Assembly: GCA_020850355.1 (NCBI GenBank)
Contig: JADZEX010000018.1
Coordinates: 1 to 64,000 of the forward strand
Length of the DNA: 64,000 nt
Source: Fimbriimonadaceae bacterium
GTDB taxonomy: Bacteria; Armatimonadota; UBA10988
Direction of reading: 5' to 3'
Shown: one piece after another, positions 3,315 through 56,600 of the stretch
How positions within the stretch are numbered: the first letter of the stretch is position 1
Layout: each line of letters begins with the position of its first letter
Translations under genes and position numbers: made by a program
The notes under the pieces: generated by a model
The model's database searches: none
Told to the model about the DNA's origin: nothing
The model's input: the letters and a program-made list of their open reading frames with translations, nothing else

Positions 3315-3330
3315 TGTTTCACGTGAAACA
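3315..3330. other. parS centromere-like site (ParB binding)
   Basis: The 16-mer TGTTTCACGTGAAACA is a perfect palindrome and matches the bacterial chromosomal parS consensus (TGTTNCACGTGAAACA) at every position. It lies between coaBC and the aldolase gene. ParB spreads from such sites to organise and segregate the origin region. No parA or parB gene is in the window. Confidence 0.85.
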
Positions 3331-4303: not shown

Positions 4304-6319
4304 ATGAGCCGGAGCTTGTTCCGGGCCGGTCTCATGGCCTGCCTGTTGGTCGGCGCCGCCGTGGCGCAGCCGATCCTGCTGGTGCAGGACGAGCGCGCGG
4401 AAGGCCTTTACGAGACGTACGTCCGCACCAGCATCCTGCGCCGGGCGCTGCACCGGGCCGGCTTGGAGCACGATGTGGTGCCCGCCGACCAGCTCGGCAG
4501 CCACAGCGCGCGGAGCGCCCTGCTGGCGGTGCTGCCCTCCAATCCCAGCCTGGCCGACCCGGCCGCGGATTGGCTGCGACGCTTCAGCGACGGCAATGGC
4601 CGGCTGATCGTCTGCCCGCCGGCGCCGCCGCAGTTGGCCAGCCTGCTGGGAGTCTTCGAACCCCGTCCGCTGGCGGCCGCGCCGGACCATCTGCTGGAAG
4701 CGGTGCAGTTCGACACCTCGCTGATTCCCGGGCTGCCGGCGACCTGGCGGCAGAGCAGTTGGACCTACCAGCCCTTCGCGGCCGATCCGACGGCCCAACT
4801 GCTCGGTCGCTGGGCTGGCGCCGACCCGCTGCTGAACGCCGCGCCAGTGGTCACGGCGACGCCGCGCGGGGCGTTCCTGGGCGCGGCTCTGCTGGGCGAC
4901 GACCGCGCCGCCGAGGCGCAGCTCTTCACCGCGCTGGCGACGCACTACTTCCCGCAGCTCTGGCACACCTGCCTGCCGCGGCTGCTGCACGACGCTGGCC
5001 GCGTCGGCGATGTCACCTCGCTCGGCGCGTTGCGCGATCTGGTCGAGCGGAGCAGCGCCCCGGCCGAACGCCGGCAGGCCGCATTGGTGGCGGTCGACGA
5101 CGCCGCGCAACGGGTCGAGCGCGCGCGGCGGATCTACGAGTACGGCAAGAAGCTCTCGGCACTGCCCCCCGGCAAGGTGCCGGCCAGCACGCCGGTCGAG
5201 CGCTACCTGCCCGCCGCCCAACTGATCTGGCAGGCGCAGACCTCAGCCGAGCAGGCCTACTATCTGGGGCAGACGGCCCGCGCTGGCGAGTTCCGCGGGG
5301 TCTGGCTGCAGCAACTGGGCGACCTCAAGGCCTGGGGCTGGGAACGGGTGATCCGCGAGCTGCAACGCCTGCGGGTGCAGGCGCTGTTCGTCTGTGTCGC
5401 CAACGGCGGGTACGCCAACTACCCCAGTCGGGTCTTGCCGCATGTCACGGCCGAGGGCCAGGACCCGCTGGCCGAGGCGCTCCGCTGGTGCCGCCAGGCG
5501 GGCATCGAGTGCCATGTCTGGATGATCAACAACTACATCCGCCCGCTGACGCCGGCGACGCACCTCGCCGAGTTGCAGGCCGCCGACCGGCTGCAGCGCA
5601 CGCGCGAGGGTCGGGTGCTACCCTGGCTGCGGCCGGCGCACCCCGCCAACGTCGCCCAACAGCTCGCCGTGGCGCGCGAAGTCCTGACCCGCTACGAGGT
5701 CGATGGGCTGCATCTCGACTACATCCGCTACAGCCCCGAGGGCGACTTCAGTGAGGCCGAGCGGCGGCAGTTCGAGACCGAGACCGGTCACCGCATCGAG
5801 CAGTGGCCGGCCGACATCGAGCGCGGCGGCACCTGGCGGGTGCAGTGGGGCGACTGGAAACGCGGCCAGGTCAACGCCGTGGTCGAGGGGCTGGCGGGCG
5901 TCGTCCGCGCGGTGCGGCCGCGCTGCAAGCTGTCCGCCGCGGTCTACCCGATCTGGGACGACGCGCGCTGGGAAGTGGCCCAGGACCCCGCCTGGTGGGC
6001 GCAGCACGGCTGGGTCGACTTCCTGACGCCGATGAACTACCACACCGACGACAGCACCTTCTACCGCTTCTTGAAGGTCCAGGCCCGCGCCGCGGGCGAC
6101 CGCGTGCCGCTCTACCCGGGCCTCGCCTCGTTCCGCCACGAGTCGCCAGCCGACACGATCAGCCAGATCCGCCGCCTGCGGGCGATGGATATTCCGGGCT
6201 ATGTGCTGTTCCACCTCGACCGCCGGCTGCTCAGCGAGTGGCTGCCCGCGCTGGCCAGCGGTCTCGCGGCGCCCGATGCCTGGCTGGGGCCGGCGCCGCC
6301 GTGGCAGGCGCCGCGCTGA
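4304..6319 (+). CDS. Secreted GHL10-type glycoside hydrolase-like protein
   Basis: A 671-residue exported protein. Residues 1-21 form a signal peptide ending in AVA. The N-terminal 320 residues contain an unassigned alpha/beta region. From about residue 325 (EFRGVWLQ) begins a TIM-barrel glycoside-hydrolase-like domain of the GHL10/DUF187 kind, with the diagnostic DGLHLDYIRY near 466 and FLTPMNYHTD further on. Members of this family are thought to cut polysaccharide or peptidoglycan-like glycans, but the substrate here is unknown. The start is the ATG at 4304, which opens the signal peptide and follows AAGGAG in the upstream gene. It is coupled to the aldolase with a 4-base gap. Confidence 0.8.
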   Translation: MSRSLFRAGLMACLLVGAAVAQPILLVQDERAEGLYETYVRTSILRRALHRAGLEHDVVPADQLGSHSARSALLAVLPSNPSLADPAADWLRRFSDGNGRLIVCPPAPPQLASLLGVFEPRPLAAAPDHLLEAVQFDTSLIPGLPATWRQSSWTYQPFAADPTAQLLGRWAGADPLLNAAPVVTATPRGAFLGAALLGDDRAAEAQLFTALATHYFPQLWHTCLPRLLHDAGRVGDVTSLGALRDLVERSSAPAERRQAALVAVDDAAQRVERARRIYEYGKKLSALPPGKVPASTPVERYLPAAQLIWQAQTSAEQAYYLGQTARAGEFRGVWLQQLGDLKAWGWERVIRELQRLRVQALFVCVANGGYANYPSRVLPHVTAEGQDPLAEALRWCRQAGIECHVWMINNYIRPLTPATHLAELQAADRLQRTREGRVLPWLRPAHPANVAQQLAVAREVLTRYEVDGLHLDYIRYSPEGDFSEAERRQFETETGHRIEQWPADIERGGTWRVQWGDWKRGQVNAVVEGLAGVVRAVRPRCKLSAAVYPIWDDARWEVAQDPAWWAQHGWVDFLTPMNYHTDDSTFYRFLKVQARAAGDRVPLYPGLASFRHESPADTISQIRRLRAMDIPGYVLFHLDRRLLSEWLPALASGLAAPDAWLGPAPPWQAPR

Positions 6320-54183: not shown

Positions 54184-55425
54184 ATGAGCCTGCGACGTGT
54201 CGTGATCACCGGCATGGGGATGCTCTCGCCGTTGGGGCATAGCCTGGCCGAGTCCTGGGCCGCTGGGGCCGCCGGTCGCAGCGGGACGGGGCCGCTGACC
54301 CGCTTCGATCCCGGCGACCTGCACAGCAGTGTGGCCGCCGAGCTGAAACAGTGGGACGCCGAGGCGCACTTCGAGCGGAAGTACCTGCGGCGGACCGACC
54401 CCTTCATCCAGTACGCCCTGGTCGCCGCCCGCGAGGCGGTGGCCCAGTCGGGGCTGCAGATCGACGACTCGAACCGCGAGCGCGTCGGCACCGTCTTCGG
54501 CTCCGGCATCGGCGGACTACAGGCTTGGGACGACAACTACAAACTACTGCGCGAACGTGGCCCGAATCGCGTCTCGCCGTTCCTGATACCGATGCTGATC
54601 GGGAACATGGCGGCCGGCATGGTGGCCATCGAGTTTGGCGCCCAGGGACCGTCGAAGTCGGTCCAGACGGCCTGCGCCACCTCGGCCCACTCCGCCGGCG
54701 ATGCCCTCCGGCTGATCCAGTGGGGCGAGGCCGACGTGATGCTGACCGGCGGCGCCGAGGCGCCGATCACGCCGCTGGCCTGCGCCGGGTTCGCCAGCAT
54801 GAAGGCCCTGACGACGCGCAACCACGATCCCGAGCACGCCAGCCGGCCGTTCGACGCCGGCCGCGATGGCTTCGTGATGGGCGAAGGGGCCGGCGCGCTG
54901 GTGCTCGAAGAGCTGGAGCACGCCCGCGCCCGCGGCGCCCGGATCTTCGCCGAGCTGGTCGGCTATGGGCAGAGCACCGATGCGTACCACATGGCGGCCC
55001 CGTTGCCCTGCGGCTCCGGCGCCGCGCGGGCGATGCAGTTGTCGCTGACCGAGGCCGGGCTGACGACGGCCGACGTCGACTACATCAACGCCCACGCCAC
55101 TTCGACCCACGCCGGCGACATCGCCGAGGTCCATGCCGTGCAGCAGCTCTACCCCGACGGCAACCTGCCGCCGGTCAGCGCGACCAAGTCGATGACCGGC
55201 CACATGCTCGGCGCCGCCGGCGCGGTCGAGCTGATTTTCTGCATCCAGTCGATCAACGAGGGGCTGCTGCTGCCGACCATCAACTACACCGACCCCGATC
55301 CCGAGTGCTTGCTCGATTGCGTCCCCAACCAGGCCCGCGCCGCGCAGGTGGACGTGGCCATCTGCAACAGCTTCGGCTTTGGCGGGCACAACTGCAGCCT
55401 GGTCGTGCGCCGCTACGAGGGCTGA
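54184..55425 (+). CDS. fabF: 3-oxoacyl-ACP synthase II
   Basis: Elongates acyl-ACP. The catalytic triad is Cys164 in TACATSAHS, His in NAHATSTHAGD (about 302) and His in TGHMLGAAGAVE (about 339). 413 residues, full length. GGCAGGGAG is the ribosome site. It is the last gene of the fab operon. Confidence 0.96.
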   Translation: MSLRRVVITGMGMLSPLGHSLAESWAAGAAGRSGTGPLTRFDPGDLHSSVAAELKQWDAEAHFERKYLRRTDPFIQYALVAAREAVAQSGLQIDDSNRERVGTVFGSGIGGLQAWDDNYKLLRERGPNRVSPFLIPMLIGNMAAGMVAIEFGAQGPSKSVQTACATSAHSAGDALRLIQWGEADVMLTGGAEAPITPLACAGFASMKALTTRNHDPEHASRPFDAGRDGFVMGEGAGALVLEELEHARARGARIFAELVGYGQSTDAYHMAAPLPCGSGAARAMQLSLTEAGLTTADVDYINAHATSTHAGDIAEVHAVQQLYPDGNLPPVSATKSMTGHMLGAAGAVELIFCIQSINEGLLLPTINYTDPDPECLLDCVPNQARAAQVDVAICNSFGFGGHNCSLVVRRYEG

Positions 55426-55440: not shown

Positions 55441-55448
55441 GGCGGGCC

Positions 55449-55464
55449 CGTTTCACGTGAAACA
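55449..55464. other. parS site, copy 1 of the tandem repeat
   Basis: CGTTTCACGTGAAACA matches the parS consensus at 15 of 16 positions. Only the first base differs. The 14-base core GTTTCACGTGAAAC is a perfect palindrome. Confidence 0.8.
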
Positions 55465-55502
55465 CGGGAGGTCCTGCGACGCGGTCGCCGAACCAGTGGG
55501 CC

Positions 55503-55518
55503 CGTTTCACGTGAAACA
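55503..55518. other. parS site, copy 2 of the tandem repeat
   Basis: Identical to copy 1: CGTTTCACGTGAAACA, centred 54 bases further on. With the site at 3315 this makes three parS sites in 52 kb. Confidence 0.8.
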
Positions 55519-55568
55519 CGGGAGGTCCTGCGACGCGGTCGCCGAACCGGCGGGCTGGAGTTGTGCCG

Positions 55569-56600
55569 GTGATCACCTCGCGCGAACGGGTACGGCGGAC
55601 GTTGAACCATCAGGCGGTGGATCGCGCCCCGCGCGATCTCTGGGCGCGGCCCGGGGTCTATGTACGGCGGAGCGAGGAGGACCGGCGGCTGCTGGAGGAG
55701 TTCCCGACCGACTTCGCTGGGCCGCGTTACCACTATGGCCGCGCCGCGCGGGCCAGCGGGTCGTCGCAGGAAGTCGGCGAGTGGACCGATGCCTGGGGCT
55801 GCCGCTGGCGGGTGCTCGAGTTCGGCTCGATTGGTGAGGTGGTCGCGCCGCCGTTGGCCGATTGGGCCAGCCTGGCACACTACCAGCCGCCCTGGGAACT
55901 GCTCCACGAGGCCGACCTCAGCGAGGTCAACCGCAGCGTCGGCGAGACCGACAAGTACGTCAAGGTCGGCACCGAGACCCGGCCGTTCGAGCGGCTGCAG
56001 TTCCTGCGGGGCAGCGAGCAGTTGTTCTACGACCTCGCCTACGGCGACGCCCACCTGCACCGCTGCCTGGCGATGTGCCACGACTTCTTCTGCCAGGAAA
56101 TGGAGCTGTGGGCCCGCACCGACGTCGATGGGGTCTGCTTCATGGACGACTGGGGCACTCAGACGGCGCTGCTGATCTCGCCCGAGATGTGGCGCGCGGT
56201 GTTCAAGCCGCTCTACGGCGACTACTGCCAGATACTGCGGTCCGCCGGGAAGGACGTCTGGTTCCACAGCGACGGGCACATCGCCGCGGTTTACCGCGAC
56301 CTGATCGAGATCGGCGTGACCGCCCAGAACTCGCAGCTCTTCTGCATGGACCTCGAAGACCTGGCCGCGCGCTTCAACGGCCAGGTCACCTTCTGGGGCG
56401 AGATCTGCCGCCAAAACCTGCTGCCCTTCGGCACCCCCGAGCAGTGCCGTGCCGGCGTGCGGCGCGTGCGCCGGGCGATGGACCGCGGTCAGGGCGGGGT
56501 GATTGCGCAGTTCGAGTGGGGCACCTTCGATCCGTACGAGAATGCCTGGGCGATCTACGACGAGTGGGCCAAGCCGCTGGCGGACCTGGCCGCCGACTGA
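55569..56600 (+). CDS. Uroporphyrinogen decarboxylase-like protein, second copy
   Basis: A 343-residue URO-D superfamily protein starting ITSRERVRRTLNHQAVDRAPRD. FHSDGHIAAVYRDLIEIGV stands at the position of the HxC zinc motif of corrinoid methyltransferases, with Asp for Cys. A real heme or methyl-transfer role is unproven. GTG 55569 is preferred over GTG 55563 because GGAG lies eight bases ahead. It starts a five-gene run to 59377. Confidence 0.72.
   Translation: MITSRERVRRTLNHQAVDRAPRDLWARPGVYVRRSEEDRRLLEEFPTDFAGPRYHYGRAARASGSSQEVGEWTDAWGCRWRVLEFGSIGEVVAPPLADWASLAHYQPPWELLHEADLSEVNRSVGETDKYVKVGTETRPFERLQFLRGSEQLFYDLAYGDAHLHRCLAMCHDFFCQEMELWARTDVDGVCFMDDWGTQTALLISPEMWRAVFKPLYGDYCQILRSAGKDVWFHSDGHIAAVYRDLIEIGVTAQNSQLFCMDLEDLAARFNGQVTFWGEICRQNLLPFGTPEQCRAGVRRVRRAMDRGQGGVIAQFEWGTFDPYENAWAIYDEWAKPLADLAAD

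What the first reader, a model, noticed from the sequence alone, without database searches (positions are those of the whole stretch)
55444..55548. Two parS sites inside a perfect tandem repeat next to fabF
A 51-base unit is duplicated exactly with a 54-base period, and each copy holds CGTTTCACGTGAAACA, a near-perfect parS. A tandem parS pair of this sort would be a strong ParB nucleation point. The identity of the flanks shows a recent or maintained duplication.
Basis: partly seen in the sequence, partly recalled or inferred. Interest (0 to 1): 0.7.

Follow-up and report, generated by a model that had tools for sequence, protein, structure and literature searches.

The report
Genome crowded with chromosome-segregation (parS) sites
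The duplicated DNA word beside fabF is a real pair of parS sites, the DNA handles bacteria use to pull copied chromosomes apart, but it is one small outlier of about 155 such sites massed around this uncultured bacterium's replication origin, more than in any other genome checked here.

Summary
A 51-bp unit is repeated at a 54-bp period (55444-55494, 55498-55548), and each copy holds CGTTTCACGTGAAACA. The sites are very probably true parS: the genome has one ParB (N, HTH and C domains) beside ParA, parS-type specificity residues, and an SMC-like ATPase motif.

The 6.67-Mb genome has 156 exact GTTTCACGTGAAAC cores (reversed-pattern control 0). Of these, 95 lie on two contigs (270 kb) starting at dnaA-dnaN-recF and rpmH-yidC-parAB, so they flank oriC. 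They form clusters of up to 6, often 45-60 bp apart, one cluster every ~5 kb, almost all between genes and favouring convergent gaps. Flanks are mostly unrelated, so most are not copies; the fabF repeat is one of few true tandem duplications.

Relatives do not share this. Same-family genomes have 0-1, and 289 of 290 others in the phylum (Armatimonadota) have at most 13. One, in another family, has 89 with a different outer base pair, suggesting independent expansion. Streptomycetaceae reach 121. I call it an extreme variant of a known kind: ParABS with many parS.

The parts
55444..55494 (.). copy 1 of the 51-bp tandem unit
   Evidence: exact identity at period 54 over 51 bases
55498..55548 (.). 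copy 2 of the 51-bp tandem unit
   Evidence: exact identity at period 54 over 51 bases
55449..55464 (.). parS site CGTTTCACGTGAAACA (perfect 14-bp core)
55503..55518 (.). parS site CGTTTCACGTGAAACA (perfect 14-bp core)
3315..3330 (.). third parS site of the window, perfect TGTTTCACGTGAAACA, 4 bases after the stop of the upstream CoaBC-like reading frame (gene name from reading, not scanned)
54184..55425 (+). fabF, upstream neighbour; parS starts 24 bp after its stop
   Evidence: TIGR03150 fabF E 1.3e-176
55563..56600 (+). URO-D-like gene, downstream neighbour
   Evidence: PF01208 E 2.1e-9

Best explanation
The two 16-mers are ParB-binding parS sites, an origin-distal member of a very large parS field (about 153-156 exact sites, about 75 clusters) in an Armatimonadota genome. 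Proposed working: the single ParB loads as a CTP clamp at each parS, slides into flanking DNA, and the closely spaced clusters around oriC together make one broad ParB-coated origin domain, roughly 270 kb or more, that ParA moves and that loads SMC. The field grew mainly by independent appearance and retention of short palindromes in gaps where they disturb little (after stop codons, between convergent genes), with occasional local tandem duplication, as at fabF. Shown: sequences, positions, ParA/ParB, origin flanking, intergenic and convergent bias, absence in relatives. Inferred: ParB binding, spreading, SMC loading, selective advantage.
For: 156 exact 14-mers, reversed control 0. One ParB with N, HTH and C domains, beside ParA. 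By my reading of the alignment to Caulobacter ParB (6T1F), the four specificity positions are R-T-K-G; R173 and G201 define parS specificity (PMC7383237). 95 of 156 sites lie on the two contigs starting at dnaA-dnaN-recF and rpmH-yidD-yidC-jag-parAB, binomial p about 1e-89. Cluster size falls from 2.6 there to 1.2 elsewhere, p 3e-8. Only 5 of 125 sites lie in coding DNA although about 92% is coding. Convergent gaps occupied 17/21 against 29/145 others. Near-misses are rare: 9 one-mismatch and 1 two-mismatch sites against 129 exact in the same sequence. SMC-type ATP-site motif at C19:105744.
Against: No binding data. The genome is a 117-contig metagenome assembly; only the order of the two origin contigs is inferred. 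About 60 sites lie elsewhere, some inside genes. No field of this size has been studied, and one parS suffices in several species (PMC7333895), so the benefit is unknown.
Confidence: 0.85

Rival explanations
1. Noc-like use: the sites are nucleoid-occlusion sites bound by a Noc-type ParB paralogue that blocks division over the nucleoid, rather than centromere sites.
For: Many dispersed clustered sites resemble how Noc sites are used (own knowledge). The best NCBIfam profile is TIGR04285 nucleoid_noc, 235.6 bits.
Against: The Noc score is far below its cut-off of 315 bits. There is only one ParB_N protein, it sits beside ParA near rpmH-yidC-jag, and it keeps the parS-type R173 and G201. The sites have parS bases, not NBS bases, and peak at oriC.
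Confidence: 0.05
2. The palindromes act in transcription, as hairpin terminators or transcription-factor sites, and their likeness to parS is secondary.
For: They sit after stop codons (median 23 bp; closer to the stop than to the next start in 19 of 25 co-directional gaps) and favour convergent gaps.
Against: No T-run follows the palindromes, no terminator-like pattern near fabF, and RNA folding of the gap is ordinary, z -1.06. The sequence itself is fixed, with no compensated variants, which a hairpin would not need. Divergent, promoter-bearing gaps are not favoured (9/52), against a regulator. Origin concentration is unexplained.
Confidence: 0.05
3. A neutral short repeat that spreads by copying (REP- or MITE-like), with no centromere role.
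For: A few clusters are clear tandem copies: the fabF pair and C46:8849-9146. C46 and C59 share a 127-bp end holding three sites.
Against: Beyond the 16-18 bp palindrome the flanks are unrelated in most neighbours, so no larger unit moved. Decayed copies are rare. Position is tied to oriC and to gaps. The core is exactly that of parS.
Confidence: 0.05

Closest known systems
Multiple origin-proximal parS of Streptomyces (11-65 per chromosome in 20 closed genomes, maximum S. albidoflavus J1074; PMC8743542)
   Same: Same GTTTCACGTGAAAC core, clusters of 2-5 sites 20-60 bp apart, massed around oriC; my count of 62 in S. albidoflavus NRRL B-1271 agrees with the published figure.
   Different: 156 here against at most 121 in 394 Streptomycetaceae; unrelated phylum. 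A preference for convergent gaps was not something I found described for Streptomyces.
Chthonomonadaceae bacterium SKYG99 (Armatimonadota, another family; G098/G291)
   Same: 89 sites, in arrays often 58 bp apart.
   Different: Outer base pair C...G (24 of 30) instead of T...A (105 of 149), and no core in the ~9 kb fetched around rpmH; suggests separate origin.
Canonical ParABS (Caulobacter, Bacillus, Thermus)
   Same: ParA and ParB genes near oriC; ParB aligns end to end with 1VZ0, 6T1F and 6SDK.
   Different: Usually one to a few parS within about 10 kb; here more than 150 over hundreds of kb.
Noc-NBS nucleoid occlusion
   Same: ParB-fold protein with many sites.
   Different: Site sequence and specificity residues are parS-type; single ParB beside ParA.

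Membership tests
chromosomal ParABS centromere (parS) | 16-bp palindrome of the TGTTTCACGTGAAACA type | tested here: met
chromosomal ParABS centromere (parS) | ParB with N (CTPase), HTH and C domains, and the GERRxRAA motif | tested here: met
   PF02195, PF17762, PF23552; GERRWRAA read from the sequence; CTPase activity itself not tested
chromosomal ParABS centromere (parS) | ParA gene adjacent to parB | tested here: met
   C96:4022-4828 and 4828-5727
chromosomal ParABS centromere (parS) | parS-type specificity residues R173 and G201 | tested here: met
   GKSRAAVVNT and LTEGHGR, read against Caulobacter ParB with residues from PMC7383237
chromosomal ParABS centromere (parS) | sites concentrated near oriC | tested here: met
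   95 of 156 on the two origin-flanking contigs, 4% of the genome
chromosomal ParABS centromere (parS) | ParB binds the sites and they drive segregation | not testable with these tools
   needs ChIP or in-vitro binding
Noc-NBS | NBS bases and Q173-K179-K184-R201 residues | tested here: not met
   residues R-T-K-G, parS bases
intrinsic terminator | stem-loop followed by a T-run | tested here: not met

The most novel reading that the evidence does not exclude
A natural diffuse bacterial centromere: more than 150 parS sites turn several hundred kilobases around oriC into one continuous ParB and SMC-loading domain, a state reached separately in two Armatimonadota families and in Streptomyces, with new sites accepted mainly at gene 3' ends and between convergent genes.
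Probability: 0.35. Interest if true: 0.7.

Novelty: new variant of a known kind. Interest (0 to 1): 0.5.

Why it matters
Why parS number varies from one to dozens, and how new sites arise, is stated as an open question (PMC7333895, PMC5815017). A lineage with about 155 sites whose same-family relatives have 0-2 gives a natural before-and-after case: unrelated flanks argue for repeated origin of the word rather than copying, the position rules (gaps, after stops, convergent pairs) show what constrains it, and the decline away from oriC gives a natural counterpart to the ~500-kb zone found by inserting extra parS in Caulobacter.

Tried and rejected
Helical phasing of site spacing: periods near 10.5-11 give only p 0.02-0.1 with several periods tried, not claimed. 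Undercount in relatives because of variant motifs: GTTNCACGTGNAAC gives 161 here, 90 in G098 and 1-2 in same-family genomes. Terminator, regulator, Noc and mobile-repeat readings: see rivals. GC skew of the four main contigs was too weak to order them.

Full report
Observation. The 51-bp tandem identity at period 54 is exact (55444-55494 and 55498-55548) and each copy carries CGTTTCACGTGAAACA. The window has a third, perfect site at 3315. Shuffled controls give 0.07 such matches per window. The repeat fills a 137-bp gap between fabF and a URO-D-like gene.

Genome-wide. The genome (G000, 6.67 Mb, 117 contigs, 95% complete) has 156 exact GTTTCACGTGAAAC cores and 166 with at most one mismatch; the reversed pattern gives none. 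I placed 149 of them in fetched sequence. Three may be counted twice, because contigs C46 and C59 share a 127-bp end that includes three sites. Contig C96 holds 55 (178 kb), C46 40 (92 kb), C22 22 (206 kb), C19 (the window's contig) 8 (213 kb); the rest are scattered ones and twos.

Origin. C46 starts with dnaA, dnaN and recF; C96 starts with rpmH (short motif only), yidD, yidC, jag, then parA and parB. These are the usual two sides of oriC (own knowledge of bacterial origin gene order), so oriC lies in or beside the gap between the two contig starts. These two contigs are 4% of the genome and hold 95 of 156 sites (binomial p about 6e-90; sites within clusters are not independent, and 37 of about 75 clusters lie there). 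Mean cluster size is 2.6 there, 1.8 on C22 and 1.2 elsewhere.

Placement. Of gaps of 40 bp or more on C96, C46 and C22, convergent ones hold a cluster in 17 of 21, co-directional in 20 of 93, divergent in 9 of 52 (Fisher p 5e-7 for convergent against either). The bias weakens but persists for gaps of 150 bp or more (p 0.009). Occupied gaps are longer partly because they hold the cluster, so length matching is imperfect. In co-directional gaps sites start a median 23 bp after the upstream stop; the fabF pair starts 24 bp after. A likely reason is that ParB near promoters represses them, as seen at parS3/parS4 in Pseudomonas aeruginosa (PMC5521831); that link is inference.

Origin of the copies. 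The conserved word is CTGTTTCACGTGAAACAG; beyond it flanks show no consensus. Neighbouring sites mostly share no flank identity, typically 0.25-0.55; exceptions include the fabF pair (0.9) and C46:8849-9146 (mostly 0.7-0.9). One-mismatch forms are few and two-mismatch forms almost absent. This fits many independent births and strong retention, with local duplication as a minor route. The fabF repeat is therefore informative as a duplication but not typical.

The protein. One ParB_N protein with HTH and C-terminal domains, GERRWRAA motif, closest solved relatives Thermus Spo0J 1VZ0 and Caulobacter ParB 6T1F. At the four residues that separate parS from NBS binding it reads R, T, K, G, the parS class; K at 184 occurs in about 28% of ParBs (PMC7383237). 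An SMC-type nucleotide-site motif lies on the window's own contig; it was not family-scanned.

Comparison. In 291 genomes of the phylum, exact-core counts are 156 here, 89 in G098, 13, 10 and 8 in a few, and 0-6 otherwise; same-family G001, G002 and G003 have 0, 1 and 0. With a looser pattern they have 2, 1 and 2, and both of G001's lie by its parB. G098 gives the same count as the genome of locus L113, a Chthonomonadaceae bacterium (89), which is how I name the phylum Armatimonadota; my own genome's record was not named. G098's sites have outer pair C...G while those here have T...A, so the two fields probably grew separately. Among 50 genomes chosen for having parS triplets, Streptomyces reach 69; in 394 Streptomycetaceae the maximum is 121. 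Published Streptomyces counts are 11-65 (PMC8743542), Myxococcus 22 (PMC3899335 abstract), and most bacteria fewer than 5. So 156 is the highest of about 735 genomes sampled here, but large fields are not unique.

Mechanism. Most likely the sites load ParB clamps that spread and merge into a broad origin domain moved by ParA and loading SMC (inference from the known system, PMC7333895). In Caulobacter extra parS are tolerated in about 500 kb around the native cluster (PMC5815017); the field here has a similar scale as far as contigs show. Why so many sites help is unknown; polyploidy, a large or filamentous cell, or a distributed ParB load are possibilities without evidence here.

Verdict. Observation confirmed, parS identity very probable, special role of this pair not supported. 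The real finding is the genome's parS field.

Noticed in passing
G640 (Streptomycetaceae): A 7.5-Mb genome with 121 exact parS cores, about twice the published Streptomyces maximum; others at 62-69.
   Followed up: no
G098 = genome of L113 (L216, L248, L275): 89 parS in a Chthonomonadaceae genome, with 58-bp tandem arrays and outer base pair C...G.
   Followed up: partly
G000 C46:91839-91965 and C59:38256-38382: Identical 127-bp contig ends holding three parS: a parS cluster breaks the assembly or reflects strain variation.
   Followed up: partly
G001 C167:4005 and 5990 (L211): Same-family relative carries TGTTGCACGTGCAACA and TGTTGCACGTGAAACA beside parB, a drifted parS word; the same G/C variants recur among one-mismatch sites of G000.
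   Followed up: no
L119, L138, L153 (Bacilli, Ruminococcus, Clostridiales MAGs): Small genomes with dense tandem parS arrays (8-12 sites) found by the triplet scan.
   Followed up: no
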